From assembly GCA_903848275.1 (NCBI GenBank), contig CAINGB010000010.1:1-47133 (forward strand): a DNA stretch of 47,133 nucleotides, read 5' to 3'. The stretch is from Candidatus Uhrbacteria bacterium. Its GTDB lineage: Bacteria; Patescibacteriota; Patescibacteriia; UBA9934. The notes below the pieces were generated by a model. It was not told the origin of the DNA, searched no databases, and was given only the letters and a program-made list of their open reading frames with translations. The number at the start of each line of letters is the position of its first letter. Within the stretch, counting starts at the first letter, position 1. A program made the translations under genes and the position numbers. This document shows, piece after piece, positions 10,236 through 42,589 of this stretch.

Positions 10236-10279
10236 AATGCCTTTGAGCATCAGACTGATCACGAACTAATCGTGTGTCT

Positions 10280-13200: not shown

Positions 13201-16200
13201 TACCGCAGGAATTCATCTTCAGGCTGGTGGCTTTGGTTCTACTGGTAACGTAGTAATTGGCCCTGGTACCGGCTCGGCAACTCCAGACTTCTTCGTTCTT
13301 GACTCTAAGAACGACGACGCTACTGATCCCGCCGGCGGTGTTAATGGTGCCAGCTACTACAACACAACAAGCAATAAATTCCGCTGCTATGAAGGGGGCG
13401 GTTGGAAAGACTGCGACTCCACTGGAGGTACAACTACCTTGCAAACAGCCTACAATTCCAGTCCTGCCATTGTTACTTCCTCCTCTCACGATCTAGCTCT
13501 CACCCTCACTTCCGGCAACTTCACTGCCACTGGCGCTGGTGCCGTCAATCTTACGCCAACCACCGCCTCTAGCTTTACCTCTGGCGGCGCTCTTACCTTC
13601 ACTGCTGGTGCCACTTCCACTTGGGGTACCACGGCGGGGGACTTAAAGTTGCAAATTGCTGGTACGAGCACTACCGGCAGCCTGCAAATTGGTGCGGGCG
13701 GTACTGGTTCCGCCACGCCAGACCTGGTCGTCCTCGACACTAAGTCAGCTGCCAGCGGCTCAGGCGATCCAACTGGCACCAAAGGAGCCACTTACTATAA
13801 CATTGCGAGTGAAAAGTTCCGTTGTTTCGAAGGCACTGAATGGAAGGACTGCGACACCGGCGGGGGAGTCGGTGCGCAGAGCCTGAACGGTCAGTCCGGC
13901 GTTTCACAGTCTCTCGTTGTTGGCAATTCTGGCACAGACTTCAATATCGTCTCCGCTCTCGACGTTCACACCTTCAACATTCCCGACGCCGCTCTGACCG
14001 CTCGCGGTTTGGTCACCACTGGCACGCAAAGCTTCGAGGGCGCCAAAACCTTCAACAATAATCTCCTCGTGAACGGCGACACCACCATCGGCAACGCCAC
14101 TGGCGACGCTCTCACCGTCAATGGCTCGGCCATCACCCTGGCAGGCAACAGCTCCGTGTTGAACATGACAGGTACTGGTACTTTAAGCCTCAACACCGTC
14201 ACGAACCGCGCCATCACCACGGGTACTGGTCTCTTCACTACTGGCGGCGGCACCAAGATCAACGGCGATTTAACCTATACCGGAGCTCTCATCAACCCCC
14301 GCGGTGCTGACTTCTCTGTTGTCGGTTCTCAGAACAACCTCGAACTCGGTAGTGGTACCTGGTTCCGTTTTACCGGTGCTTCCCAGATCACAATTACGGG
14401 TATCGCGAGCCCCTCAGACGGTCGCCAGGTTCGCCTTACGAATGCTTCGTCGTCGAACATGGTCTTTGCTAACCAAGACGTTTCGTCGACCGATGTTAAT
14501 CGCATTATTACCCCAGACGGTGGTAACCTCACCATTCCACCTAATGCGACGGCTACTTTCCAATACGACTCCGCTACCCAGCGCTGGCGCTTAGTTATTT
14601 TGCCAGCCTCTAGTGCCACTGTTGCCTCCTTTGCCTACATTCAGGGCGGTAATGCCTTCGGCGCCACAGCCACACTCGGCACTACGGACGCCTACGCCCT
14701 TAACCTCAAAACCAATAACGTCACCGCCCTTGCTCTCGACACTTCCGGCAACGGCAACCTAACAGGCGACCTCACGGTAACCGGTGGCGATATCTCCACT
14801 CCTGCCGCAACATCGCTGAACATGACGGCTGGTACTACTGGCGTCCTTACACTCGATACTGGTTCCACTGGCGCAATTAACATCGGTACCAATTCGAACG
14901 CGAAGATCCTCACTATCGGAAACACATCGGGAGCCACGGCAGTGCACGTCAATTCCGGTTCCGGCAACGTCCTCTTCACTTCCTCCACCACCACCTTCCA
15001 AACCGCCACAGCTACCAACGACAAGCTCGCTCTCGTCCCACACTCGGGCGCCGCTGCTTCCTTCACCGGTAACATCACTTCTGCTGATATCACAGTTGCC
15101 GACAAAACCTGGACTCTCCCTAACCTCACCGGCAACATTCTGCTCGACACCTCCACCTGTCCTTCCACCAGTTCCTTCGCCTGCGGAGCCGGCAACAACA
15201 CTGGCGCCACTCTCACCCTTGGTACGACGGACGCTAACGCCATGATCCTGGAGACTGGTGGCGCTACTCGCTTCACCGTCGCAGCCGGTGCCGCAACTCT
15301 CACTGGTACTGGCACAACATCTGTCACCTCGACTGGGTCGCTTTCCCTATCTTCTGCTAATACTACCGCCGTGAACGTCACGACCGGCACCACCGGTGTT
15401 CTCACCCTCGACTCCGGCACCACTGGCGGCGTCAATCTTGGTACGGGTGCAACCTCAAAAACAGTCACAGTCGGTAATACGACCGGCACCTCAACCCTCA
15501 ACCTCAATAGTGGTTCGGGCGGCATTGCGCTTGGCGGCAACACCACTATTTCCGGCGCCAATACCTTCGCTACCGGTTCCGGTACTACCACTATCAACTC
15601 CACGGCTATTACCTTGGCCGGTGCCAGTGCTGTCATGGATCTCACCAGCGGCACTCTTGGCCTCAACACCACCTCCAACCAGCCGATTAACACGGGTACT
15701 GGTCTCCTGAGCGTTGGCGGCGCCCTGTCAGTTACTGGTGCCCTGACGGTCTCTGACGGTTTTGCTACACCAAAGGGCGCTGACTTCGCTACTACCGGCA
15801 CTGTTAATAATGTTGACTTTGGTAATGGCTCTCTCTTCCGCTACACAGGTATAAATAACGCCACTCTAACTGGTATTGCTAACGGTATTGACGGCAAGCG
15901 TATTAGTATCATGAACGTGTCTAGCTTTAACCTCATTATTGCCAACGAAAGCGCTAGTTCCACGGACATCAACCGCATTCTCACCACAAGCGGCGCCAAC
16001 GTGACGATTCCGTCGCTTTCCACTGTCGGCTTGCAGTATGATGCTGCAGCGACCCGTTGGCGCGTGATTAATATCCCAGTCAGCTCAGCCTCTATTTCTG
16101 CTTACGGCTTCCTCCAGTCCGGCAATGCCTTTGGAGCCACAGCCGTTCTTGGTACCACGGACGCTAATGCCTTAAACCTCATTACGAGCGGCGCCACCCG

Positions 16201-18973
16201 TTTCACTATCGCCACCGGTTCACCAACTCTCACCGGCACCGGCTCCACTATCCACACATCCACCGGTAGCATGACAGTCTCATCGGCGGCCGGAGCTGTC
16301 CTAACCCTCGATTCTGGCACAACCGGCACGGTTAACCTTGGTACTGGTACGGCAGGGAAGACCATCAACATCGGCACTGACAACACCACCGCCGACATCA
16401 TCGGCCTCGGTTCAGCCTTGGATACTCTGACTCTCACCGGCAATTCAAGCTCAACCATCGTTTTGAACGCTGTCACCATTAGCGCAGCTGAACTTGCTCG
16501 TTTGGACGGCCACGACGCTGCCTTGGTCGACACCAACGACGCCGTAGCCACAGCTATTACGGGCACTGGCGCTCTCGACGCCGGTTCAATTACCTCCGGC
16601 TTCGGCGCTATCGACACCGGTGCTGACAACATCACTACCACCGGCACGGTCTCTGCCAATAACTTCGATCGCTCAACCTCTGGCGCTCTCACCTTTGGCA
16701 ACACCAACGCTACCTCAGCTTCCATCTGTAACTCAGCTGGTTGCGATACCGTTACCATCGGCACTAACGCCGACGCTGACACCATCACTATCGGTGATAC
16801 CCTGGACTCCCTGTCATTTGCTTCAACTGGCTTAAACCTCACAATTGGTGGTGCCTTAACCGGCGTCGCTTCCATCGACACTATTGCTACCTCGGCTACC
16901 GCCCTTACCTTCGCTGGCGTTGGTGCAATTTCCTCGACAACGTCCTCCTCCATGACCGTCGACTCTGGCTCAACTGGCTCTCTTCTCCTCGGCACCGGCG
17001 TCGCTGCAAAGACAATAACCATCGGTAACGGTACGGACGATACGTTCTCTCTCAACTCCTCCGCCTTTGTGGTTTCGACCACGGGCGCCTTGACCGGCGT
17101 CACTTCCGTCGACACCATCGCTCACTCGGCAACTGCTATCACCTTCGCCGGCGCCGGTACCATCTCTTCAACGACTACCTCTGCCATCACTCTCGACTCT
17201 GGCTCTTCCGGCGACGTCAATGTCGGCACAGGTGCAACGGCCAAATCAGTTACCATCGGCAACGTCACTGGCGCCACTAGTCTCAACCTCAAGTCCGGTA
17301 CCGGTAACATCCTCCTGACGGTCGACGGCACAGCCTCAAGTGGCATGGTCCGCATTGGTAATAGCGCCACGGCGACCCCAGACTTGCTTGTCCTCGACAA
17401 CGGCACCGCAGATCCAACCGGTGTGAACGGTGGTATGTACTACAGCACCGGCACCAACAAACTTCGTTGTTACGAGAACGGTGCCTGGAAAGATTGTATT
17501 TCAACGGCAACTGGTGCTGGAACAGATATCCAGCACGCTGCGCTCTATGACACCAACGAGGCGTTAACGAACGTGCCGACCGGTGGTGCTCAGGTAACGC
17601 TCGGCACAGTCTCTGTCACGCCAACAACAGCCACTGGCGACATCTATGTCACGGGTTATGCTGAAGTACGAAGCGGTAACAACACCGATCAGCCCTTCCA
17701 GCTGGTGATTGAAACAACAGCTAATTGTACTGGTACTACAGTTGGAAACGCCGACGTAACTTACACTATTACCTCCGCCTCCAGTACAACGGTACATTTG
17801 GGCAATATTCGAATCTCTGGTATCGCTGTCGACGCAGGAGCCTCAGCTCACCCTTACTCTCTTTGTGGCGCGGTGACTTCTGGCGGCGGCGACACGGATG
17901 TATTGAACTGGGGCATTGAAGCCTTGGTTATAGACACCGGTGCTGACTTAGCAGAAAACTATACTTCCAATGACGCTAGTCTTGAAGCCGGCGACGTCGT
18001 TGCTTTGGACGGTAGCCTGCAAACCGGAGTCAAGAAGAGCTCTGGACTGGCTGACTCTGGTGTTATCGGCATTGTCTCTACCCGACCAGGGCAACTCATT
18101 GGTGGCGTCAGTCGCGAAGGTGTCCAGGTCTTGCCGGTCGCTCTAGTCGGTCGCGTTCCGGTCAAAGTGTCGGCTGAGAACGGTGCCATCGCCGTTGGTG
18201 ACTACCTCGTTCCATCCTCAACTCCAGGTATTGCCATGAAAGCTAACGCAACAGGAACTGTTATTGGCCAAGCCATGTCGAGCTTCACCGGTAGCAGCCA
18301 GGGCATTGTCCTCGCCTTCGTCAAAAACTTTGCCCAAACTGGCGGTTCCGTTCTGCTTGGCAGTGTTTCCCCCGACGCCGCTGGTCTCACTGGCTTCATC
18401 ACCACCATCCAAGCCGAAGCTGCTCACGACCCAATCGCCATTCTCACCGCCAAGATTGGTGGCGGTACGGAATTCCTAACTGACTTCGTAGCTGCTCGCG
18501 TCACTGCTATTCGTGGCTACTTCGACGAACTCTTCACCAAGAAAATCCACACGGATCAACTCTGCGTCAAGAAGTCGGACGGCACTGAAATCTGTGTCAC
18601 CGGCGACCAGCTACAAAACGCCGTCGGTGGTACCGTCCAGAACGCTCCAGTCATCGCCCCAGCCCCAGTTGCTACTCCAGTCACTGTTGACGCCCCGGCC
18701 GTCGAACCTGTAAACCCTCCCCCAGCCATGGGGGAGACGGAGGGGGCTAGTACGAACTTGGCAGAGCCTACCGTCGACGTTACTCCCGCCGAGCCTTCGG
18801 CCGAATCAAGTACCTCGCCAGAGACAGCTCCCGCTCCCGAGGCTAGTGCGTCGGCAGCCGAAGCACCAGCCTCTGAGCCAAGTCAAAGCTCAGCTTTGAC
18901 CGCAAACCCAACAAGCGAGCTGAGCTCGCCAGCCTCCGAACCGGCCTCCGCACCTACTCCAGATGGTGTATAA
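10280..18973 (+). CDS. Giant secreted beta-strand-repeat (tail-fibre/adhesin-like) surface protein
   Basis: Signal peptide LASLLIGLSLFSPLIASA; repeated TTGTTGVLTLDSGTTGAVNLGTGAxxKTITIGNTTGAT modules; C-terminal ADLAENYTSNDASLEAGDVVALDGS...IGIVSTRPG module; Pro/Ser-rich tail. ORF track starts at GTG 10274; ATG 10280 preferred. Confidence 0.9.
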   Translation: MINCSEDAIHSRFLKLPLASLLIGLSLFSPLIASATTYLPGATLEPDCAPGTPDCGVSPIGDAHTGSGAPTSTTLATGALYFDTAGGIFYAYNGTAWVSVGSGTTISSLNGQSGASQTFAIGTSGTDAAWSSATNVHTLNIPDASLTARGLITTGTQTIAGNKTFSGNTILSGNLSIIGDFSTPLGTELVTTGTQNDVAISSGGLFRYNGLGTAAFSGFAGGTDGKFIRIINISASSISFANQDATSAAENRIITTTGNAITITTNGSIGLQYDGAAQRWRVVNVPANAASIAGFAYEQNGNGFGATAVLGTTDANALNLITSGTTRFALAAGASTLTGTGPTTLSSTGTLALSSAAASAIGITTGTTGALTLDSGTTGGVNLGNGAASKIITIGNSTGTTALNLSSGSGGISLAGNVTIPNGNTFSTGTGTTTIKSTSISLTGNDAILNMTGTGILGLNTTTNRAITTGTGLVTIGGSAQTNGNLTIAGNLYLPKGADFATSGTVNNVDFGAGSQFRYIGTPPTIITGIAGGSDGRLMTLINSAGAGDLTLKNANTGSLAENRIETGTASDMVIPEDSAVILQYEDYGTGEKHWHLLAPPSNVAAVALAAFLQGGNSFGATATLGTDDFYNLNLKTNGATALALDTSGNANLTGDLTVTGGDIVTPAATALNITTGTTGILTLDSGTTGAINIGASSVAKIITIGNTTGATAVNIDAGSGGINFDGNTTFTDGNSFTSGSGAFHVVGDYATPKGTDYTTTGVQNNVNIGTGSLIRYTGAGTATFTGITGGTDGRQVRIMNASAYTLSFTNEDSGSTAANRILTSAVGGTLNIPAGISPTFQYDSGASRWRLVVLPASSGTISGFAYIQGGNAFGVAANLGTTDANALNLKTNNVTAVSIDTSSNANFTGDITVTGGDVVSPAASALNITTGTTGVLTLDSGSTGAVNLGTGAAVKTISIGNTAGATRVNIDSGTAGIHLQAGGFGSTGNVVIGPGTGSATPDFFVLDSKNDDATDPAGGVNGASYYNTTSNKFRCYEGGGWKDCDSTGGTTTLQTAYNSSPAIVTSSSHDLALTLTSGNFTATGAGAVNLTPTTASSFTSGGALTFTAGATSTWGTTAGDLKLQIAGTSTTGSLQIGAGGTGSATPDLVVLDTKSAASGSGDPTGTKGATYYNIASEKFRCFEGTEWKDCDTGGGVGAQSLNGQSGVSQSLVVGNSGTDFNIVSALDVHTFNIPDAALTARGLVTTGTQSFEGAKTFNNNLLVNGDTTIGNATGDALTVNGSAITLAGNSSVLNMTGTGTLSLNTVTNRAITTGTGLFTTGGGTKINGDLTYTGALINPRGADFSVVGSQNNLELGSGTWFRFTGASQITITGIASPSDGRQVRLTNASSSNMVFANQDVSSTDVNRIITPDGGNLTIPPNATATFQYDSATQRWRLVILPASSATVASFAYIQGGNAFGATATLGTTDAYALNLKTNNVTALALDTSGNGNLTGDLTVTGGDISTPAATSLNMTAGTTGVLTLDTGSTGAINIGTNSNAKILTIGNTSGATAVHVNSGSGNVLFTSSTTTFQTATATNDKLALVPHSGAAASFTGNITSADITVADKTWTLPNLTGNILLDTSTCPSTSSFACGAGNNTGATLTLGTTDANAMILETGGATRFTVAAGAATLTGTGTTSVTSTGSLSLSSANTTAVNVTTGTTGVLTLDSGTTGGVNLGTGATSKTVTVGNTTGTSTLNLNSGSGGIALGGNTTISGANTFATGSGTTTINSTAITLAGASAVMDLTSGTLGLNTTSNQPINTGTGLLSVGGALSVTGALTVSDGFATPKGADFATTGTVNNVDFGNGSLFRYTGINNATLTGIANGIDGKRISIMNVSSFNLIIANESASSTDINRILTTSGANVTIPSLSTVGLQYDAAATRWRVINIPVSSASISAYGFLQSGNAFGATAVLGTTDANALNLITSGATRFTIATGSPTLTGTGSTIHTSTGSMTVSSAAGAVLTLDSGTTGTVNLGTGTAGKTINIGTDNTTADIIGLGSALDTLTLTGNSSSTIVLNAVTISAAELARLDGHDAALVDTNDAVATAITGTGALDAGSITSGFGAIDTGADNITTTGTVSANNFDRSTSGALTFGNTNATSASICNSAGCDTVTIGTNADADTITIGDTLDSLSFASTGLNLTIGGALTGVASIDTIATSATALTFAGVGAISSTTSSSMTVDSGSTGSLLLGTGVAAKTITIGNGTDDTFSLNSSAFVVSTTGALTGVTSVDTIAHSATAITFAGAGTISSTTTSAITLDSGSSGDVNVGTGATAKSVTIGNVTGATSLNLKSGTGNILLTVDGTASSGMVRIGNSATATPDLLVLDNGTADPTGVNGGMYYSTGTNKLRCYENGAWKDCISTATGAGTDIQHAALYDTNEALTNVPTGGAQVTLGTVSVTPTTATGDIYVTGYAEVRSGNNTDQPFQLVIETTANCTGTTVGNADVTYTITSASSTTVHLGNIRISGIAVDAGASAHPYSLCGAVTSGGGDTDVLNWGIEALVIDTGADLAENYTSNDASLEAGDVVALDGSLQTGVKKSSGLADSGVIGIVSTRPGQLIGGVSREGVQVLPVALVGRVPVKVSAENGAIAVGDYLVPSSTPGIAMKANATGTVIGQAMSSFTGSSQGIVLAFVKNFAQTGGSVLLGSVSPDAAGLTGFITTIQAEAAHDPIAILTAKIGGGTEFLTDFVAARVTAIRGYFDELFTKKIHTDQLCVKKSDGTEICVTGDQLQNAVGGTVQNAPVIAPAPVATPVTVDAPAVEPVNPPPAMGETEGASTNLAEPTVDVTPAEPSAESSTSPETAPAPEASASAAEAPASEPSQSSALTANPTSELSSPASEPASAPTPDGV
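18713..18747 (+). repeat. Dispersed hairpin repeat, family R2, in frame inside the giant ORF
   Basis: aaccctcccccagccatgggggagacggagggggc; near-identical copy at 42754-42789. Confidence 0.85.
18882..18929 (+). repeat. Two-palindrome repeat, family R3, in frame inside the giant ORF
   Basis: gtcaaagctCagctttgac-cgcaaacccaacaa-gcgagctGagctcgc. Confidence 0.85.
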
Positions 18974-28329: not shown

Positions 28330-28375
28330 GGAAAGCTGAGCTTTCCTCGCATACCGACAACCGAGCTCAGCTCGG
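28330..28375 (+). repeat. Two-palindrome repeat, family R3, abutting the tmRNA 3' end
   Basis: ggaaagctGagctttcc-tcgcataccgacaa-ccgagctCagctcgg. Confidence 0.8.
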
Positions 28376-28376
28376 G

Positions 28377-28777
28377 TGGATCTGGTGGGAGTTGAACCCA
28401 CGTCTGACAGGCATAATCGCAGAGCTTGTTACAAGCATGTCTAAGCTTAATGTTCATGCCGTGGCTAAAAGCTTAGCCAAATACCACGGACCATGTTCCT
28501 ATCCAACGGTTGCGGCTTAGTGATAGGAGAACTAAGCAACCGAGCTAATCTTTATAACACGCGGATCCCAAAGGTTAGCACTTCGGGGCGCATGGGTGAC
28601 ACGCTTACGCGGTGACCAAGGAGAGTGAAGGAGCAGCGGCGAAGACTTTCGCGGCTGAGGCCTTTACCCATGAGAAGGTGTTGGCATTTCTCGATTGCCT
28701 CAGGTGGTGACGCAGTCTGAGACATCTGCGGCTTGACTCTTTTGACCATGGTCCCGCCATCGAAACCGGGCAGACCC
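28377..28777 (-). ncRNA. ssrA: tmRNA
   Basis: Minus strand 5' GGGTCTGCCCGGTTTCGATGGCGGGACC, 3' GTGGGTTCAACTCCCACCAGATCCA; 7-bp acceptor stem GGGTCTG/CAGATCC; CCA not encoded; adjacent smpB. Confidence 0.95.
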
Positions 28778-29235
28778 TAATCTTCTTTCATACGTTGACG
28801 AATCTCGCGGTCGAGGTCCTTTGCCTTGATGGAATCACGCTTTTCGTAAGCGTGTTTCCCGCGGGCGAGGGCGAACTCGAGCTTCACAAGATTCCCTTTA
28901 GTATATACCGAAACAGGCACAATAGTCAACCTTTCTGCCTCATTTTTACCGCGAAGTTTATTGATTTCTTTGCGGTTTACTAGCACCTTCCGGTCCTGCG
29001 TCGGACTGTAGCCAAGTTGGACGCCAGCCGCGGCATACGGCCCAATGTGCATGCCATGAATAATCAGCTCGCCACCTTTACGGCTGTTCTTCACGTCGAG
29101 GAACGCGCCCTTCAGGTTGACGTGACCCATTTTAGCCGCCTTCACTTCGGCTCCCGTCAACACTAAACCACCCTCGAATTTATCGAGTAAGGTGAAGTCG
29201 TAGAGCGCTCGGGCATTTTTAGCGAGTTGTGGCAT
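28777..29235 (-). CDS. smpB: SsrA-binding protein SmpB
   Basis: NARALYDFTLLDKFEGGLVLTGAEVKAAKMGHVNLKGAFLDV...GKHAYEKRDSIKAKDLDREIRQRMK. Confidence 0.97.
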   Translation of the reverse strand: MPQLAKNARALYDFTLLDKFEGGLVLTGAEVKAAKMGHVNLKGAFLDVKNSRKGGELIIHGMHIGPYAAAGVQLGYSPTQDRKVLVNRKEINKLRGKNEAERLTIVPVSVYTKGNLVKLEFALARGKHAYEKRDSIKAKDLDREIRQRMKED

Positions 29236-33827: not shown

Positions 33828-34871
33828 ATGATCACCCTCATCGCCCTGACCCTCGCCTTCGCCAACCCCACTGCGGCTGGTGAAGCGCCGCCCACCGACA
33901 CCTGCCCCGAGGAGCTCAACGCCGCCAACAAGCGGAACGGCGAGCTCACCACGCGGCTGGAGGAGTGCGAGCAGAAGCTGGAGGCAGCCAAGGCCACGAC
34001 CCCCAAGACGGCTCCGGCCGTTCGGGTCGCGCCCAAGGCCAAGCCCCAGCCCGCTCCCGCACCCGCCGCCGACGACACCAACCCCCCGCCCACGGACCTC
34101 CGTCCCGGCGACGACGAGGACGCGGAAGACGAGGAGATCGACCATCTCTTCGACAGTCCGCCGCCAGTCGCCGCCCCCAACAACTACGTCCTCGTCGCTC
34201 CCAACCCCGGCCCGCTGGTCATGCAAGTGGCCATCGACTTCCCGCAGGAGCGGCGAACCCGTGCCCCGAAGGTCTGTCATCAGCCCAAGGACACGGACGA
34301 GGACGAGGTCCCCGAGAACTCCACGCCTGCGCCGGTTTCGACTGGCAATGCGCGTGCCGAGTTCCTGGTTGGAGTGATGGGTGGAGTCAGCTACGCCGGT
34401 GAGTCCATCAAGTCCGCCGATCACACGGTCGTCGGCGGTGGACTCGAGGTGCCTCTCAGTGCATCGGCCGGCTTCCTCCTCACGGAGAAGAACGGTCTGG
34501 TCATCGGGGGTCTCCTGCACGGTGGAGCTGAGCCGGTGTCGCAAGGCAGCAACGCCGGGTTCGACTTCCTGCTCGGTGGCAGCCTCGGCTGGGCGCAGGT
34601 GATGGTGGGCTTCGGCCCGTCCTTCACCGCCTACCAGTCGTGGGACGGTCAGATGGGGGCCTCGCTGGAAGGCGGGGAAGCCAAGCTGATCGGCCTCGTG
34701 CCACTCGGAGATGCGCGCTTCGGTGCGGACATCTTCCTGGCCGCTGGGGCCAAGGGCGGTGCGCTCATGACAAGCGACTCTGCGCAGCTCGGCTGGGGCG
34801 TCCATCCCTCGCTCGAGGGTGGGGTCACCATCCACTTTGCCACCAAGCGCGTGACCGAGTCTGAGGAGTAG
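33828..34871 (+). CDS. Secreted protein with coiled coil, Pro-rich linker and C-terminal beta-barrel-like region
   Basis: Signal MITLIALTLAFANPTAAG; C-terminal alternating strands AEFLVGVMGGVSYAG...GLVIGGLLHGG...FLLGGSLGWAQVMVGFGPSF. Confidence 0.65.
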   Translation: MITLIALTLAFANPTAAGEAPPTDTCPEELNAANKRNGELTTRLEECEQKLEAAKATTPKTAPAVRVAPKAKPQPAPAPAADDTNPPPTDLRPGDDEDAEDEEIDHLFDSPPPVAAPNNYVLVAPNPGPLVMQVAIDFPQERRTRAPKVCHQPKDTDEDEVPENSTPAPVSTGNARAEFLVGVMGGVSYAGESIKSADHTVVGGGLEVPLSASAGFLLTEKNGLVIGGLLHGGAEPVSQGSNAGFDFLLGGSLGWAQVMVGFGPSFTAYQSWDGQMGASLEGGEAKLIGLVPLGDARFGADIFLAAGAKGGALMTSDSAQLGWGVHPSLEGGVTIHFATKRVTESEE

Positions 34872-34886
34872 TCCTCGCGGTCTCTC

Positions 34887-34925
34887 GGGAGTCCGGCGGC
34901 AGTAGCAATACTGTCGCCGGCTCCC
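34887..34925 (+). promoter_or_regulatory. GCAA-tetraloop hairpin, cassette copy 1 (terminator or leader element)
   Basis: gggagtccggcggcagta-GCAA-tactgtcgccggctccc. Confidence 0.6.
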
Positions 34926-34930
34926 ACCCC

Positions 34931-35080
34931 TCTCAACTCTGTCTACACAAACGCCGTTTTCCTAAACGACTTTTCTGTAGCCATGGTTCCTCTAAAGAAC
35001 CTACGGCGAACGTCAATTTCGGCGTCCCCCTCTCAACCCTCGCCCATCCGGGCACCAGTCAACAACACAGGAGCAAGAAA
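34931..35080 (+). repeat. Leader cassette repeat copy 1
   Basis: tctcaactctgtctacacaaacgccgttttcctaaacgac...cgggcaccagtcaacaacacaggag; near-identical to 35772-35918. Confidence 0.9.
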
Positions 35081-35083
35081 ACA

Positions 35084-35701
35084 ATGCGCAACAACATCAA
35101 CCCCCTGGCTTCGGCCTTCCTCGGTCTCTTCCTCACGACCAGCCCCGTGATGGTGGTTTCCACCCTCACCGGCTGCAGCGAGCAGCGAGACGCCGCGACC
35201 GACGTCCCCATCGTGTCCGGCGCGGACAACGGCGTGAATGTCAGCAGCTTCACCGAGGAGAACTGCTTCCAGGACATGGAGCCCCTCGGCTACGCCTCCA
35301 CCATCGGCATGCCGACGACCATGTTCCACTACGCCGAGGCCGACGCCTGCTACGCCGGCCTCAACTCCAAGGGCGAGTCGGACGACTTGAACCGTCCCGG
35401 CAACCTCTGCGCCGAGGTCGAAGGCGTCAAGATCGCGGAGACCGGCGTCACCTACGTGCTGACCGAGCTCGATCCAGGCGTGGACCTCTCCGACTCCTGG
35501 TACCAGGGCAACTGGTACAACCAGGCGGACAAGACCTGCGACCCGAGCGACAAGGGCAGCTCGTGCTGGGCCACCACCCAGAACTGCCAGCCGTCGAAGT
35601 GGATCAGCACCTACCTCGACACCGAGGGCGTGCTGCAGGCCAACTTCAGCGCGCTGTCCACGCAGGACGGGCTGATCGGCAAGGGCGACTTGGCCAACTA
35701 G
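35084..35701 (+). CDS. Predicted lipoprotein, hypothetical
   Basis: Signal with lipobox LTGC; ATG after acaggagcaagaaaaca. Confidence 0.75.
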   Translation: MRNNINPLASAFLGLFLTTSPVMVVSTLTGCSEQRDAATDVPIVSGADNGVNVSSFTEENCFQDMEPLGYASTIGMPTTMFHYAEADACYAGLNSKGESDDLNRPGNLCAEVEGVKIAETGVTYVLTELDPGVDLSDSWYQGNWYNQADKTCDPSDKGSSCWATTQNCQPSKWISTYLDTEGVLQANFSALSTQDGLIGKGDLAN

Positions 35702-35723
35702 GGGATTAGCCACCCCTCTCGGT

Positions 35724-35759
35724 GGGAGTCGGCGGACGCGCAAGCGTTCGTCGGCTCCC
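35724..35759 (+). promoter_or_regulatory. GCAA-tetraloop hairpin, cassette copy 2
   Basis: gggagtcggcggacgc-GCAA-gcgttcgtcggctccc. Confidence 0.6.
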
Positions 35760-35771
35760 AACCCGACCCTC

Positions 35772-35918
35772 TCTCAACTCTGTCTACACAAACGCCGTTT
35801 TGCTAAACGACCTTTCTGTAGCCATGGTTCCTCCAAAGAACCTACGGCGAACGTCACTTCCGGCGTCCCCTCACAACCCTCGCCCATCCGGGCACCAGTC
35901 AACAGCACAAGGAGTATC
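35772..35918 (+). repeat. Leader cassette repeat copy 2
   Basis: tctcaactctgtctacacaaacgccgttttgctaaacgac...cgggcaccagtcaacagcacaaggag. Confidence 0.9.
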
Positions 35919-35921
35919 AAA

Positions 35922-37058
35922 ATGCACAACATCCCTTACCTCGCGGTTTCCGCGATCATCGCCCTCGCCACGTTCACCGGCTGCACGTACGACAAGTCGA
36001 ACACCACGATCACCGAGATCGCGGACACCGGCAGCGCCACGACCAACGTCCCGCTGACGACCGACAACTCGGACGGCACGGACACGGACACGGACACCGG
36101 CGACACCGACACCACGACCACCACGGACTGGTACTCGGATCTCGACGGCGACGGCCAGGGCAGCATCACCTCGCACATCACCGGCAACAAGCCGAGCGAG
36201 TCGAGCGGCAACTGGATCAGCGTCGGCGGCGACTGCGACGACAGCGACCCGGAGACCTTCCTCGGCGCCGCCCCGCTCGACAACCCGGCGCTCTGCCTGC
36301 AGGACGACGACGGTGACGACTACGGCGCCAAGTCCCCGGACGTCTCGGGCGTGGTCAACGGCACGGACTGCAACGACGCGAATGCTGGCACCCACCCCGG
36401 GGCGGCGGACACGGCGGGCGACGGCGTGGACCAGAACTGCGATGGTGCGGACACGGCGGCCTCGGCCTCCTATACGTACTACCAGGACAGCGACATCGAC
36501 GGCTATGGTGCGCTGGCCAACTGGACGACGACGGCTTCGGCCACCGCGCCCACGGGCTACGTGACCAACTCGACGGACTGCCTCGACACGGACGCGACGG
36601 TTCACCCCGGCGCGACCGAGATCGTGGGCAACGGCAAGGACGACGACTGCAACACAGCCACGTCCGACACCGCGTCGAGCTCGAGCACGGCCCACACGCT
36701 CTGCTTCAAGGGCGTGGACGCCAACGTCGGCACGGTCGAGGTGTTCGTCATGGGCAACTCGTTCGTGGACGCCACCTACTGGCCGGCGGGGGATTGGTCA
36801 ACGCTCTCGACCGCTTCCACCAACCAGTTCGTCACTGTCACCGGCACCACCGAGGTGTGCGGCACCTGGACCAGCTCCGGGTTGAGCCACGGCGCCACGT
36901 TCAAGCAGAACGGCTACGGTCCGTACAGCGGAGCTCTCCGTTGGGTCGTCCAGGCCGCGAGCTCGCCGGTGGATGTCGTGACCCTCACCAAGTTCGATGG
37001 TGTCGCGCCCATGAGCCCGATCCTCTCGGGCAACGACGAGGTGCACACCGTGCCCTAG
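35922..37058 (+). CDS. Predicted lipoprotein with MopE-type metal-binding repeats
   Basis: Lipobox FTGC; DGDGQG, GGDCDDSDPETFLGA, GTDCNDANAGTHPGAADTAGDGVDQNCDG. Confidence 0.8.
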   Translation: MHNIPYLAVSAIIALATFTGCTYDKSNTTITEIADTGSATTNVPLTTDNSDGTDTDTDTGDTDTTTTTDWYSDLDGDGQGSITSHITGNKPSESSGNWISVGGDCDDSDPETFLGAAPLDNPALCLQDDDGDDYGAKSPDVSGVVNGTDCNDANAGTHPGAADTAGDGVDQNCDGADTAASASYTYYQDSDIDGYGALANWTTTASATAPTGYVTNSTDCLDTDATVHPGATEIVGNGKDDDCNTATSDTASSSSTAHTLCFKGVDANVGTVEVFVMGNSFVDATYWPAGDWSTLSTASTNQFVTVTGTTEVCGTWTSSGLSHGATFKQNGYGPYSGALRWVVQAASSPVDVVTLTKFDGVAPMSPILSGNDEVHTVP

Positions 37059-37149
37059 CCCTTCTCCCGGGCCATGCGGAACGGGGATCGGAGCTACGAA
37101 GCTCCGGTCCCCCGACCTCCCAAGTTCTTTGCTACTAACGATTACAAGA

Positions 37150-37220
37150 AGAGACTCTATAACTGAGTAACATTGCTCCGAGCATGTTATTCAACCGTGG
37201 AGTCTCTTTTGTATTTTCAT
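37150..37220 (+). terminator. Terminator with nested two-part stem
   Basis: aagagactc ... gtaacat/atgttat ... gagtctctt followed by ttgtatttt. Confidence 0.65.
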
Positions 37221-37356
37221 TTTCTCTACCCCGCCACCCCGCTACGCTCCCACCCCGCCTTTACAATTTAGCTATATTCCGCTACGGTTAGCCAGCTACT
37301 AGCCCTTTAACAGTCAACAACCAAACTGTCAGCCAAGCGCTGATACGGAGCACCCC

Positions 37357-38871
37357 ATGATCACCTCCCTCGCCCTTTTCGGCCTCGCTTGCACCGACGT
37401 CCTCGTCAAGTACAACAGTCAGTGCCAAGGTCCGCACGACACCTGGGCCGGGTGCGACACGGCCGTCGACACCGGCGACACGGATTCGCCGCCTGACTCG
37501 GATACCGACACGGCCAAGGACTCGGACTCCGACTCCAGCGACAGCCACGAGTCGGACACGGACACGGATTCGGATTCATCGGGTGATACCGACGCCGACA
37601 CGGACACCGATGCTGACACTGATACGGATGCCGATGCGGATACGGATTCCGACACCGACACTGACAGCGACAGCGATTCCGATACGGACACGGACAGCGA
37701 TACCGACACTGACACCGCCAAGGATACCAGCATCGATACCGCGCCAGACACGGACACCGCTGTCCCAATCGACACGTCGGACACTGGCGTTCCGGTCGAC
37801 ACCGCCAAAGATACGAGCGGCGACACCGGTCCCACAGACACTGGCACGTTGCCCATCGATGCCGACGGCGACGGCTACTTCAGCCCAAGCGACTGCGACG
37901 ACACCGACGGCACCATTTTCCCTGGTGCGGTGGAGCTCTGCGATTTCGTCGACAACGACTGTAGCGGCATGGCCGATGACGGCGACTACGACGGCGACGG
38001 TCACACGGTCTGCGACGACTGCGACGACGCCAACCCCTACGAATTCTTCGGCGGGGTGGAAGTCTGCGACGGTTTCGACAACGATTGCGACGGCCTGGTG
38101 GACAACAACGCCACGGACGCCTACAGCTGGTACCTCGACCTGGACGGCGACAGCTATGGCGACCCAGCCACAATTCTCCTCGACTGCGGCGTGCCCTCGG
38201 GCTACATCACAGACGATCAGGATTGCGACGACGGCAACGCTGCCATCAACCCGGCCGCCACGGAGAACCCCTACACCGTGACGGACGAGACCTGCGACGA
38301 CTTGTCCATGAACGACGGGACCGTGTACACCGCCAGCACCGGTGGCACCCTCGTCTTCACGGGCGAGAACCAGTTCAGCAACGCAAATTTCGCGGACACG
38401 TCGGACTTCGCTGGTTGGACGTTGGAGGTGACGCCCGACTGCACCGCGGTTAGCGGCATCGACGACTCCTATGGCCACGTGGCGTCTTCGGACTTCACCT
38501 CAACCATCGGCGGCGTCGCCAACGGGCTCGGCTTTCCAGGTACAGCTGGCATCTGTGATCCGGCCGCTGTCTGCTATCGGTCAGCAACCGTGGCCATGTC
38601 GGTTGGGGACGACTACGCTCTGGCTTTCGACGAGGACAATAGCTACAGCTTTGGACTTTCTCAGCGGGTGTATTTGGCCAGCGACTACGATGCTGGTCTC
38701 GCACCCTTATATCCCAACAGTGCTCCAGCAGGCACCGATCAGCAGATCGTGACGTGGACCCAGGCTTCCCAGACGACCGATGCTTGGATCATTTGCTCTG
38801 GTGGGACAGATTTCGACGACACTCTCGTCTTCTCCCACGTCTACTCCTCCCAGGCCACCGTCACCCCGTAG
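37357..38871 (+). CDS. Predicted lipoprotein with Asp/Thr/Ser low-complexity stalk and MopE-type repeats
   Basis: Lipobox GLAC; DTDTDADTDTDADADTDSDTDTDSDSDSDTDT; DGDGYFSPSDCDDTDGTIFPGAVELCDFVDNDCSG. Confidence 0.8.
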   Translation: MITSLALFGLACTDVLVKYNSQCQGPHDTWAGCDTAVDTGDTDSPPDSDTDTAKDSDSDSSDSHESDTDTDSDSSGDTDADTDTDADTDTDADADTDSDTDTDSDSDSDTDTDSDTDTDTAKDTSIDTAPDTDTAVPIDTSDTGVPVDTAKDTSGDTGPTDTGTLPIDADGDGYFSPSDCDDTDGTIFPGAVELCDFVDNDCSGMADDGDYDGDGHTVCDDCDDANPYEFFGGVEVCDGFDNDCDGLVDNNATDAYSWYLDLDGDSYGDPATILLDCGVPSGYITDDQDCDDGNAAINPAATENPYTVTDETCDDLSMNDGTVYTASTGGTLVFTGENQFSNANFADTSDFAGWTLEVTPDCTAVSGIDDSYGHVASSDFTSTIGGVANGLGFPGTAGICDPAAVCYRSATVAMSVGDDYALAFDEDNSYSFGLSQRVYLASDYDAGLAPLYPNSAPAGTDQQIVTWTQASQTTDAWIICSGGTDFDDTLVFSHVYSSQATVTP

Positions 38872-38875
38872 TACA

Positions 38876-38900
38876 CCACGTCGGTCGCGACCGACTGTGG
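38876..38900. repeat. Palindromic repeat, family P1
   Basis: ccacgtcggtcgcgaccgactgtgg; one mismatch to the 1403 copy. Confidence 0.75.
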
Positions 38901-38902
38901 CT

Positions 38903-38956
38903 GGCCGCCTTTTTCACCCTCTAACCGGGGTTGGGAAGGCGGCCTCCTTCTTTTTT
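38903..38956 (+). terminator. Rho-independent terminator
   Basis: ggccgcctt...aaggcggcc followed by tccttctttttt. Confidence 0.75.
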
Positions 38957-38968
38957 AGGCTAATTTCA

Positions 38969-39015
38969 GCCAAAGCTGAGCTTTGGCCGCAAACCAACAA
39001 TCCAGCTGAGCTGGA
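38969..39015 (+). repeat. Two-palindrome repeat, family R3
   Basis: gccaaagctGagctttggc-cgcaaaccaacaa-tccagctGagctgga. Confidence 0.85.
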
Positions 39016-39040
39016 CAAAACCCCCAATATTTGCTATACT
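39012..39040 (+). promoter_or_regulatory. Candidate promoter overlapping the end of the R3 repeat
   Basis: TGGACA-N17-TATACT upstream of the CDS at 39154. Confidence 0.5.
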
Positions 39041-39153
39041 TTCCGGTCGGCTACCCAGCCGAGCACGGGTTCTAAACCCATGCGTTTCCTCCGTTTTTAG
39101 CTCTTTTCAGTCAACGTCAACAACCCCCAGCCCTCACGGGCAAAGGAGCAACC

Positions 39154-40962
39154 ATGCTCATCTTCTTCCTCACCGCCTGTTCCGGCGGCGTCACCTCACC
39201 CATCGACACCGGCAACGTCGAATGCGGCCATGGCACCCATCTTCTCGATGGCGAGTGCGTGGCCAACGACGACACGGCCGCGGACGACACCAACTCCGAC
39301 TCCACGGACACCAACGTGGACACGGACACCGGCGCCCAGGTCACCACCTACTGGTACCTCGACAACGACGAGGACGGTTGGGCCGGTTCGGGAACCAAGC
39401 TCCCCTATGACCCGGGCAGCGAGTTCTACATCGCTGTCACGGACGCCAGTACGTACACCTTCGACTGCAACGACTACGACGCGGCCATCAACCCGGGCGC
39501 CATGGAGATCCTCGACGACGGCGTCGATGAGAACTGTGACGGCTACGACAGCCAGGCGACGTGGTACGCGGATGTGGACGGCGACGGTGCCGGTGATTCG
39601 GAGAACTGGATCATGGGCACGGCAGCGGACATCGCACTCTACCCGGGCAACTGGGTGGACAACGCGAGCGACTGCGACGACACGGACCCAAGCGTCACGA
39701 GCGGCTGGATCTTCTACGCGGACGTCGATCTCGACGGCTACGGGGACATCTACGCCACCACGGACGAGAAGGCCTGCACCGCGCCGGACGGCTACGTCGA
39801 TGACGCCAGCGACTGCGACGACACGAGCGCCGCCATCAACCCGGCGGCAAGCGAGATCTGCGACGGGTTCGACGACGACTGCGATGGCAGCGTCCCGAGC
39901 GACGAGCAGGACTCCGACGGCGACGGCCTCTCCACCTGCGCGGGCGACTGCGTGGACACCAACAACTTCATCAACCCCAGCGCGAGTGAGATCTGCGATG
40001 GGCTGGACAACGACTGCAACGGCACGGTCGACGTCGGCGCCACGGACGCCACCAACTGGTTCTACGACGCAGACCTCGACGGTTACGGCAACGTGACCGC
40101 CATCGTCAGCCAGTGTGACCAGCCGGCGGGCTACGTGAGCAACAACACCGACTGCAACGACGCGAGCTCCGGGGTCAACCCGAGTGCGAGCGAAGTCTGT
40201 GACGGTGTGGACAATGACTGTGACGAGTTGGTGGACGACGCCGACGCCTCGGTCAACGGGCAGAGCGTGTGGTTCCAGGACGCTGACGGCGACGAGTACG
40301 GCAACGTGGGTTCGCCCAAGTTGTCCTGCTCCCAGCCTTCCGGCTACGTCAGCGACGACAACGACTGTGACGACGCCGTGGCTACCACTTACCCTGGTGC
40401 TCCCACCGTCTGCGCGGCCGGCGTCGATGCCAACTGCGACGGCAGTGACGACTCGGTGGACGGCGACGGCGACGGTGTGCTCTCCTGCGACGGAGACTGC
40501 AACGATGCCAACGCCACCATCTACCCCGGCGCGAGCGAGTACTGCAACGACGTGGACGACGACTGCGACGGCAGCGTGGACGAGAGCGCGGCCGACGCCA
40601 GCACCTGGTACCAGGACGCGGACAGCGACAGCTTCGGCAACGAGGCGGTCAACGTCAGCCAGTGTGACCAGCCCGCGGGCTACGTCAGCGATGCAACGGA
40701 CTGCGACGACGCGAGCAATGGGATCAACCCCGGCGCGAGCGAAGTCTGCAACGACATCGACGACGACTGCGACGGCTTGACCGATGACGCTGACCCCAGC
40801 ATCACCGGCCAGACCACCTGGTACTACGACGGCGATGGCGACACCTACGGGAACGCCAGCGACAACGTGACCACGTGCGACCAGCCGGCTGCGGACAGCC
40901 ACGGCAAGTTCTACGTCCCGGACGGCACGGACATCGATGACGCCGACAAGAACGTCCACTAG
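39154..40962 (+). CDS. Predicted lipoprotein with many MopE-type metal-binding repeats
   Basis: MLIFFLTAC lipobox; repeated DCDDxSxxINPxAxEICDGxDNDCDGxVD and WYxDxDxDGYGN. Confidence 0.85.
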   Translation: MLIFFLTACSGGVTSPIDTGNVECGHGTHLLDGECVANDDTAADDTNSDSTDTNVDTDTGAQVTTYWYLDNDEDGWAGSGTKLPYDPGSEFYIAVTDASTYTFDCNDYDAAINPGAMEILDDGVDENCDGYDSQATWYADVDGDGAGDSENWIMGTAADIALYPGNWVDNASDCDDTDPSVTSGWIFYADVDLDGYGDIYATTDEKACTAPDGYVDDASDCDDTSAAINPAASEICDGFDDDCDGSVPSDEQDSDGDGLSTCAGDCVDTNNFINPSASEICDGLDNDCNGTVDVGATDATNWFYDADLDGYGNVTAIVSQCDQPAGYVSNNTDCNDASSGVNPSASEVCDGVDNDCDELVDDADASVNGQSVWFQDADGDEYGNVGSPKLSCSQPSGYVSDDNDCDDAVATTYPGAPTVCAAGVDANCDGSDDSVDGDGDGVLSCDGDCNDANATIYPGASEYCNDVDDDCDGSVDESAADASTWYQDADSDSFGNEAVNVSQCDQPAGYVSDATDCDDASNGINPGASEVCNDIDDDCDGLTDDADPSITGQTTWYYDGDGDTYGNASDNVTTCDQPAADSHGKFYVPDGTDIDDADKNVH

Positions 40963-40982
40963 GGGTAACGCCCCTAAACCTT

Positions 40983-41030
40983 CGCGCGCAGACATCCCTC
41001 ATTCGGGAAGTCTGCGCGCGATTCATTTTT
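40983..41030 (+). terminator. Rho-independent terminator
   Basis: cgcgcgcagac-atccctcattcgggaa-gtctgcgcgcg followed by attcatttttt. Confidence 0.8.
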
Positions 41031-41047
41031 TATGGTAAAATAATCGT

Positions 41048-42589
41048 GTGCAGAATCTCCGCGACATTTATCATCTGTCGGAAGAGCGAACACGCTTCGC
41101 TGTTTTTGGTTTAATCGGTTTACTCCTCGTCGGCCTGGCTGGCATTGTTTGGTTCTCGCCCACGTTGACGTTGGCTCTCATGGCCGCGCTCATCATTATC
41201 TTCGTCAGTTTCGTTAGGCCAACTTGGACGCTCTACGGCCTCATGCTTTACCTCCCGTTTGAACCGTTCATTCTCAAGTGGGTACCAGACAACATTTACG
41301 TTTACGCCCGCTATTCCTCGGAGCTAATCGTCTATCTCCTTGTCGCCGTAGTTCTCTGGAAGCTCGTGTCGGGTGCACAAAAATGGCGCCGCACACCAAT
41401 CGATCTCATCTTCGGCCTCTTCTGCTTTCTCTTGCTGGCCAGCACTTTACTCAACCTCCACGATCCGCTCACTTCCATGCTCGGCCTCCGTCAAATCCTG
41501 CGTTTCGTTCTTCTGTATTTCATCACCGTTCAACTCCAGCCGAGCGCCAAGTTCATCAAAATCGCCATCGCCTCACTCCTCGCGATCGTCATGTTACAAA
41601 CCGCCCTCGGTTACGGCCAGGCCATCGTCGGCGACAAACTCGACAGCTTCTTATTGCCAAGCGAACACCGCGAACTCGGCGCCTTGCAACTCACCGCTGG
41701 CACCGTCGAATTCTGGGACCCGGGTCAACGCGTCTTCGGCACCATGGGTCGCTACGATCAGCTTGGCACCTTCATGGCCCTCGTCTTGTTGCTACTCGTC
41801 GCCTGGCTCTACGAACATCGTGACGCCGCCATCCCCCGGCGTTACTGGCTAGCTCTCACTGTCGCCCTCCCAATTCTAGCTCTCACTTATTCTCGTTCCG
41901 CCTGGTTCGGTTTTGTCCTCGGCTTTCTCTTCATTGCCATCTGGGCCAAGCGCGACAGTCGAGTCATGCGGGGCAGTGCTATCGTCGTTGGCCTACTCGC
42001 CGTTTATCTCGCAGTGACGGGTCTCGCCGTCAATTCTCTCATCGACGTTCCTGGTCAAACTTTTGCCAATCGTTTTTTCGAAACTTTCTCCGCGGAGCGC
42101 TGGACCGGCGAATACTTCGGCCTCGGTCGCGTTTACTGGTTTGCTAAAACTGTCACCACCGTTGTCCCCTCATCACCGCTCTTCGGCTTCGGGCCGGCCA
42201 GCTACGGCGGGGGAGCAGTCGCCGCGGTGGCCGACACTCGCGTTTACGACAATCTCGCGTTACCCTTCGGCGTCTACGGCACAGAAGGCTACATTGACAA
42301 CAACTGGTTCAGCCTCTGGGGCGAAACTGGCACCCTCGGCCTCGTGGCTTACGTCGCCATGTACGTGACTCTTTTCCTCCTCTGCCTCAAGTTCTGGCGT
42401 CGGGCCACCTCCGCTGAAGACAAAGCCCTCGCCCTCGGTGTCGCCGCTGTCATGTTGGCCGTCGCTCTCAACGCTTTCCTCGCCACCTTCTTGGAAGCCC
42501 GCACCCTCGCCCCGTACCTCTGGATCCTCGCCGGTTTCGTCACTGTCCGCGCTGACCTCACGAGCCGACATTCAACGGTAAGAGCCTGA
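41048..42589 (+). CDS. O-antigen ligase/polymerase-like polytopic protein (GTG start)
   Basis: About a dozen TM segments with a large extracytoplasmic loop; TYSRSAWFGFVLGF, GFGPASYGGG. Confidence 0.85.
   Translation: MQNLRDIYHLSEERTRFAVFGLIGLLLVGLAGIVWFSPTLTLALMAALIIIFVSFVRPTWTLYGLMLYLPFEPFILKWVPDNIYVYARYSSELIVYLLVAVVLWKLVSGAQKWRRTPIDLIFGLFCFLLLASTLLNLHDPLTSMLGLRQILRFVLLYFITVQLQPSAKFIKIAIASLLAIVMLQTALGYGQAIVGDKLDSFLLPSEHRELGALQLTAGTVEFWDPGQRVFGTMGRYDQLGTFMALVLLLLVAWLYEHRDAAIPRRYWLALTVALPILALTYSRSAWFGFVLGFLFIAIWAKRDSRVMRGSAIVVGLLAVYLAVTGLAVNSLIDVPGQTFANRFFETFSAERWTGEYFGLGRVYWFAKTVTTVVPSSPLFGFGPASYGGGAVAAVADTRVYDNLALPFGVYGTEGYIDNNWFSLWGETGTLGLVAYVAMYVTLFLLCLKFWRRATSAEDKALALGVAAVMLAVALNAFLATFLEARTLAPYLWILAGFVTVRADLTSRHSTVRA

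What the first reader, a model, noticed from the sequence alone, without database searches (positions are those of the whole stretch)
28770..28790. smpB stop codon overlaps the tmRNA 5' end: possible self-limiting trans-translation circuit
Minus strand reads GAT TAG|GG TCT G. The G of the smpB TAG stop (nt 28777) is predicted to be G1 of the tmRNA acceptor stem (GGGTCTG pairs with CAGATCC at 28378-28384). If smpB and ssrA share a transcript, RNase P cleavage at the tmRNA 5' end would leave smpB mRNA ending ...GAU UA with no stop codon. That product is a natural trans-translation substrate, so tmRNA maturation would limit SmpB production. smpB-ssrA adjacency is well known; the zero-spacing overlap and the feedback idea are my reading.
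Basis: partly seen in the sequence, partly recalled or inferred. Interest (0 to 1): 0.85.

Follow-up and report, generated by a model that had tools for sequence, protein, structure and literature searches.

The report
Interlocked smpB and tmRNA genes
In this Patescibacterium the gene for the rescue protein SmpB ends on the first base of the gene for its partner, tmRNA, and seems to carry that gene's promoter inside it, so making mature tmRNA should cut the stop codon off SmpB's message; this was known only from Carsonella but recurs across Patescibacteria.

Summary
smpB (29235-28777, minus strand) ends in TAG, and the G of that stop is G1 of a tmRNA that Rfam places at 28777-28374. The acceptor stem is 7/7 paired with the G3-U70 alanine signal, and the tag frame is conserved in relatives. 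RNase P cleavage before G1 would leave smpB mRNA ending ...GAU UA.

The feedback idea is not new. Hudson, Lau and Williams (2014, PMC4131195) stated it for Carsonella and found it nowhere else. Here smpB runs into tmRNA in 12 Patescibacteria genomes of nine families, plus one further contig. Both species of the window's genus that have the genes overlap, at -1 and -8.

Two results qualify the idea. Overlap is no commoner than for ordinary coding gene-tRNA neighbours in these compact genomes (12/143 against 2/49). And ssrA has a predicted promoter inside smpB (TTGACT-18-TATACT, 28929-28900). The codons that spell it are kept in 99/109 linked smpB genes of the class and in 0/21 unlinked ones (P = 5e-17).

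Most likely this is a compaction-driven interlocked gene pair: tmRNA comes mainly from its own intragenic promoter, and the smpB mRNA it matures from becomes non-stop. A selected feedback circuit is possible but unproven.

The parts
28777..29235 (-). smpB, 152 aa, stop TAG at 28779-28777
   Evidence: PF01668 E = 1.3e-42; ORF
28374..28777 (-). ssrA (tmRNA); A73 at 28377 followed by CC at 28376-28375, terminal A of CCA not encoded
   Evidence: RF00023 89.2 bits, full length
28777..28777 (-). shared base: G of smpB TAG = G1 of tmRNA; predicted RNase P cut between 28778 and 28777
   Evidence: acceptor pairing and T-stem register
28771..28777 (-). tmRNA acceptor 5' strand GGGTCTG (G3 pairs with U70)
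28378..28384 (-). tmRNA acceptor 3' strand CAGATCC
28605..28685 (-). tag reading frame ANTFSWVKASAAKVFAAAPSLSLVTA* (resume codon at tmRNA nt 93)
   Evidence: same frame in the congener G003 (ANTFSRVKASAAKAFRVPSLSLVAA) and similar tags in other relatives
28900..28929 (-). predicted ssrA promoter inside smpB: TTGACT-N18-TATACT, 10 of 12 consensus matches
   Evidence: codons kept in 99/109 linked and 0/21 unlinked ABY1 smpB genes
28778..28893 (-). predicted 5' leader (about 116 nt, 3' part of smpB) of tmRNA precursor from the intragenic promoter; start site inferred, not mapped
   Evidence: inference from promoter position; -10 to G1 distance 122 nt here, 105-137 in overlapping or near-zero relatives

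Best explanation
smpB and ssrA are interlocked. ssrA is transcribed mainly from its own sigma70-type promoter embedded in smpB codons 103-112, giving a tmRNA precursor with a leader of about 116 nt. Transcripts that start upstream of smpB run through both genes, because the smpB stop codon shares its last base with tmRNA G1 and no terminator can intervene. Ribosomes that reach the stop before tmRNA is folded and cut terminate normally. Once RNase P cuts before G1, the smpB mRNA ends ...GAU UA, later ribosomes stall on it, and trans-translation tags the new SmpB and removes the mRNA. So each co-transcript gives one tmRNA and a limited amount of SmpB. The arrangement most likely arose by genome compaction and is tolerated; whether the resulting negative feedback matters to the cell is open. 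Shown by sequence: the overlap, its recurrence, and the conserved promoter-like codons. Inferred: promoter activity, co-transcription, RNase P cutting, stalling and tagging.
For: Overlap. Recurrence: gap -1 here and in G288 and L162; -8 in G003, G114, G131, G270, G329, G382, G400; -10 in G318; -12 in G155; -21 in G357; exactly 0 in nine more. Own-genus retention: G000 -1 and G003 -8. Promoter inside smpB: 99/109 linked against 0/21 unlinked in ABY1, P = 5e-17; TTG is 105/109 at this Leu against 23% of Leu codons in the same genes. Within genus g20 linked G037 has TTGACA...TATACT, while unlinked G043 and G051 have CTCACG/CTCACC...TACACC/TTCACC. Four genomes with the signature but no tmRNA hit all proved to have tmRNA just downstream on the same strand. 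Three linked genomes of family f131 without the signature have TTGACA-17-TATTTT or TATATT between the genes instead. RNase P processing of the tmRNA 5' end is established (PMC3985003).
Against: No transcript data exist for this organism. Overlap frequency does not exceed the coding gene-tRNA baseline (12/143 against 2/49, P = 0.52), so no selection for overlap is shown. Many relatives have gaps of 4-150 nt or unlinked genes. Some linked smpB genes lack the promoter signature without an obvious replacement (e.g. G389 and G351; G369 of family f131), and only some unlinked tmRNA genes show a good promoter near G1.
Confidence: 0.65

Rival explanations
1. Selected feedback circuit: the overlap is maintained because non-stop smpB mRNA lets tmRNA-SmpB activity limit SmpB synthesis, as trans-translation limits ArfA.
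For: Overlap kept at different registers in both species of the genus that have the genes and at -8 in three genomes of genus g266; recurrence in nine families. ArfA and its non-stop mRNA are a working precedent (PMC3985003).
Against: Frequency equals the coding gene-tRNA baseline; most linked relatives do not overlap; a conserved ssrA-only promoter means tmRNA supply need not depend on smpB mRNA.
Confidence: 0.2
2. Pure compaction without consequence: nearly all tmRNA comes from the intragenic promoter, smpB is translated and terminated before tmRNA folds, and cut smpB mRNA decays before it is translated again.
For: Conserved near-consensus intragenic promoter; coding genes also abut or overlap tRNA genes in ABY1 (FemAB at -10, Wzy_C at -47, several at 0).
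Against: Every smpB mRNA with a stop codon still has to be a tmRNA precursor, so some cutting into non-stop mRNA is expected if RNase P acts normally.
Confidence: 0.35
3. Stop codon completed after cutting, as in animal mitochondria: RNase P leaves ...UA and 3' adenylation makes UAA.
For: The window's remnant is UA, so one added A would restore a stop. The tRNA punctuation model is described in papers found (e.g. PMC4493943; found, not read).
Against: Other overlapping lineages leave remnants that A cannot complete: C in G003, A in G131 and G270, AG in G318, none in G155 and G357.
Confidence: 0.05
4. The conserved codons inside smpB reflect protein or codon-usage constraint, not a promoter.
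For: The site encodes the conserved LT-VP-S-YT segment; in the window alone a 10/12 match arises in 3% of synonymous shuffles (59 of 2000).
Against: Unlinked orthologues keep the amino acids but not the codons (0/21); intergenic promoters appear where the signature is missing in f131; the signature predicted linked tmRNA in 4/4 genomes.
Confidence: 0.07

Closest known systems
Carsonella ruddii smpB-ssrA overlap (Mao et al. 2009; Hudson, Lau and Williams 2014, PMC4131195)
   Same: smpB coding sequence runs into ssrA so that tmRNA maturation should give a non-stop smpB mRNA; the same feedback is proposed there.
   Different: Carsonella is a decayed endosymbiont whose SmpB has lost the tail and central loop. 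Here SmpB keeps a normal-length tail, the overlap recurs in many Patescibacteria, and an intragenic ssrA promoter is predicted. The 2014 survey found the overlap nowhere else.
ArfA non-stop mRNA control by trans-translation (E. coli)
   Same: A ribosome-rescue factor made from an mRNA that a nuclease turns non-stop, so its product is tagged while trans-translation works.
   Different: ArfA mRNA is cut by RNase III and ArfA is the back-up factor; here the cut would be by RNase P and the target is SmpB itself.
tRNA punctuation in animal mitochondria
   Same: RNase P cuts inside or next to the stop codon of the upstream message.
   Different: There polyadenylation completes the stop; most overlaps here cannot be completed that way.
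E. coli smpB-ssrA locus (PMC3946193)
   Same: Same gene order; ssrA has its own RpoD promoter (TGGTCA-18-TATACT).
   Different: In E. coli the promoter lies in the spacer between the genes; here it is predicted inside the smpB coding sequence.

Membership tests
tmRNA (RF00023) | Full-length covariance model match above gathering score | tested here: met
   89.2 bits against 47, positions 1-374
tmRNA (RF00023) | 7-bp acceptor with G3-U70 and T-arm | tested here: met
   GGGTCTG/CAGATCC, T-stem GTGGG/CCCAC
tmRNA (RF00023) | Tag reading frame starting with Ala and ending hydrophobic | tested here: met
   ANTFSWVKASAAKVFAAAPSLSLVTA*, conserved frame in relatives
tmRNA (RF00023) | Aminoacylated and active in tagging | not testable with these tools
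   needs RNA or protein work
SmpB (PF01668) | Pfam match and C-terminal tail | tested here: met
   E = 1.3e-42, residues 5-151; tail KRDSIKAKDLDREIRQRMKED aligns with relatives
Carsonella-type smpB-ssrA overlap | smpB stop codon inside or sharing a base with the mature tmRNA, same strand | tested here: met
   G of TAG = G1; gap -1
Carsonella-type smpB-ssrA overlap | tmRNA maturation yields non-stop smpB mRNA | not testable with these tools
   follows from RNase P cutting before G1; not measured here, and stated as expectation in the 2014 paper
ArfA-type autoregulation by trans-translation | Protein level rises when trans-translation is lost | not testable with these tools
   needs tmRNA-defective strain
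Mitochondrial-type stop completion | Remnant U or UA that adenylation turns into UAA in all overlapping cases | tested here: not met
   true for the window, false for G003, G131, G270, G318, G155, G357
sigma70 promoter (intragenic, for ssrA) | -35/-10 hexamers at consensus spacing, conserved beyond protein constraint and only where ssrA follows | tested here: met
   99/109 against 0/21; 4/4 predictions
sigma70 promoter (intragenic, for ssrA) | Start site and activity | not testable with these tools
   no transcript data

The most novel reading that the evidence does not exclude
In Patescibacteria smpB and ssrA form a selected, self-balancing unit: ssrA fires from a promoter written into smpB codons, and tmRNA maturation by RNase P removes the smpB stop codon, so each long transcript yields one tmRNA and a capped amount of SmpB that rises when trans-translation fails.
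Probability: 0.15. Interest if true: 0.75.

Novelty: new variant of a known kind. Interest (0 to 1): 0.5.

Why it matters
The published view is that smpB-ssrA overlap, and the feedback it implies, is a curiosity of half of the Carsonella strains. Finding it in nine families of Patescibacteria, with normal SmpB tails, makes the feedback idea testable on intact genes. The promoter written into smpB codons would be a clear, phylogenetically controlled case of dual coding, and it tells experimenters where to look for the tmRNA start site in a phylum with almost no transcript data.

Tried and rejected
Selection for the overlap from its frequency: rejected as evidence, because coding gene-tRNA neighbours in four ABY1 genomes overlap about as often (2 confirmed of about 49; two further calls of 96 and 133 aa look like spurious ORFs). 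Stop completion by adenylation as a general rule: rejected (remnants differ). A promoter close upstream of G1 in overlapping genomes: none convincing in the window (best 6 of 12). The generic promoter scan alone was uninformative (3 found, 1.4 expected); only the linked/unlinked comparison made the intragenic promoter credible. A regex search for downstream tmRNA missed cases and was replaced by Rfam positions and protein alignment.

Full report
What is there. The window is contig C10 of a genome whose close relatives are titled Candidatus Uhrbacteria (Patescibacteria). On the minus strand smpB (29235-28777, PF01668) ends ...GAA GAT TAG, and Rfam places a full-length tmRNA at 28777-28374 (89.2 bits). 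The last base of the stop is therefore G1 of tmRNA. The register is secure: GGGTCTG pairs 7/7 with CAGATCC, which directly follows the T-stem, G3-U70 (the alanine signal) falls in place, and an unconstrained fold pairs the same stem. The tag frame ANTFSWVKASAAKVFAAAPSLSLVTA is conserved in relatives, so this looks like a working tmRNA. ARAGORN misses it.

Is it more than a one-off? I measured the distance from the smpB stop to G1 in 115 genomes where both genes lie on one strand (111 within 150 nt) and know by coordinates of about 32 more with larger gaps. Twelve overlap: -1 (window, G288), -8 (G003, G114, G131, G270, G329, G382, G400), -10 (G318), -12 (G155) and -21 (G357). A thirteenth, at -1, is a Parcubacteria contig (L162). 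They fall in nine families. Nine more have a gap of exactly 0, where the cut would fall right behind the stop codon. The tmRNA 5' sequence GGGGxTGA explains the recurring registers: TAG can share G1, and TGA at tmRNA nucleotides 6-8 is the next stop in one frame. In the window's genus the only other species with both genes, G003 (SmpB 65% identical), overlaps by 8.

Baseline. In four ABY1 genomes 150 tRNA genes gave about 49-51 cases with a same-strand coding gene within 150 nt upstream. Two are confirmed overlaps (a FemAB protein at -10, a Wzy_C protein at -47) and four have a gap of 0. That is not different from 12 of 143 (P = 0.52). So compaction alone can account for the frequency. The finding is real but gives no statistical evidence that the overlap is selected.

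The promoter inside smpB. The window carries TTGACT-18-TATACT in smpB codons 103-112 (28929-28900). A generic scan would not make this credible, but a comparison does. In class ABY1, 99 of 109 smpB genes with ssrA downstream on the same strand keep TTG (Leu), ACN, TAT (Tyr) and a codon ending in T at these positions. None of 21 smpB genes whose ssrA is elsewhere or on the other strand does (P = 5e-17). TTG is used for 23% of Leu codons in the same genes but for 105 of 109 here. In genus g20 linked G037 has TTGACA...TATACT while unlinked G043 and G051 have CTC...TAC or TTC. Outside ABY1 17 of 25 linked and 0 of 4 unlinked genes carry it. The signature also predicted correctly: four genomes with it but without a tmRNA hit under strict filters all have tmRNA just downstream. 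That same search also found linked tmRNA in genomes without the signature (family f131 and G387), which lowers the ABY1 fraction to about 102 of 117; three of the f131 genomes have TTGACA-17-TATTTT or TATATT between the genes instead. In genomes with near-zero or negative gaps the -10 box ends 105-137 nt before G1. I infer that ssrA is transcribed from inside smpB with a leader of about 116 nt.

How it most likely works. No terminator can lie between the genes, so an smpB mRNA that reaches its stop codon continues into ssrA. RNase P processing of tmRNA 5' ends is established (PMC3985003). After cutting, smpB mRNA ends ...GAU UA and ribosomes should stall with two bases in the A site, a trans-translation substrate. 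Because the acceptor stem needs the 3' end of ssrA, ribosomes close behind RNA polymerase can terminate before the cut; later ones cannot. This would cap SmpB per transcript. All steps after the sequence itself are inference.

What is known. Hudson, Lau and Williams (PMC4131195) describe exactly this overlap and feedback for Carsonella, credit Mao et al. 2009 for the overlap, and report that they found it nowhere else. Their set was 2031 complete genomes from November 2012. ArfA is the functional precedent for a rescue factor on a non-stop mRNA. In E. coli the ssrA promoter lies in the spacer (PMC3946193). My literature searches covered only open-licence papers; I found no report of an ssrA promoter inside smpB or of this overlap in Patescibacteria.

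Verdict. Observation confirmed; interpretation partly supported and already proposed elsewhere; new here are the wide recurrence in Patescibacteria and the predicted intragenic ssrA promoter. Limits: metagenome assemblies without transcript data, related genomes counted as separate points, and a modest tRNA baseline.

Noticed in passing
G001, G002, G017, G024, G029, G030, G032, G036, G073, G089, G097, G100, G129, G188, G200, G316, G330: These 17 Patescibacteria genomes show neither smpB (PF01668) nor a tmRNA hit; G100 is a single contig rated 100% complete while two species of its genus have both genes, and G001 and G002 are in the window's own genus. The 2014 survey found no bacterium lacking both. 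G380 keeps only an interrupted smpB fragment. The strict tmRNA filters can miss divergent copies.
   Followed up: partly
L012, L022, L025, L074 upstream of tmRNA: In several relatives of the same family a long palindrome (GGGCCTGCCCCGTCGCTCGCGAGCGACGGGGCCTGCC in L012) sits flush on the tmRNA 5' end and contains its first nine bases, so the precursor could form a hairpin that competes with the acceptor stem.
   Followed up: no
L407:1033-2010, L390:704-2047: Other coding genes run into tRNA genes in ABY1 (FemAB by 10 nt, Wzy_C by 47 nt), so RNase P may make several natural non-stop mRNAs in these cells.
   Followed up: partly
window 34000-42000: Stretch of 60-65% GC against about 52% around it, with several Asp-rich MopE-type metal-binding repeat proteins (35922-40962; PF11617); possibly acquired DNA or a chimeric join.
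   Followed up: partly
window 10274-18973: A single ORF of 2899 aa made of many degenerate repeats, likely a giant surface protein.
   Followed up: no
L431, L434, L436, L437, L440: tmRNAs of family f131 and of G387 are missed by the strict genome search although they score 53-85 bits in a direct scan.
   Followed up: partly
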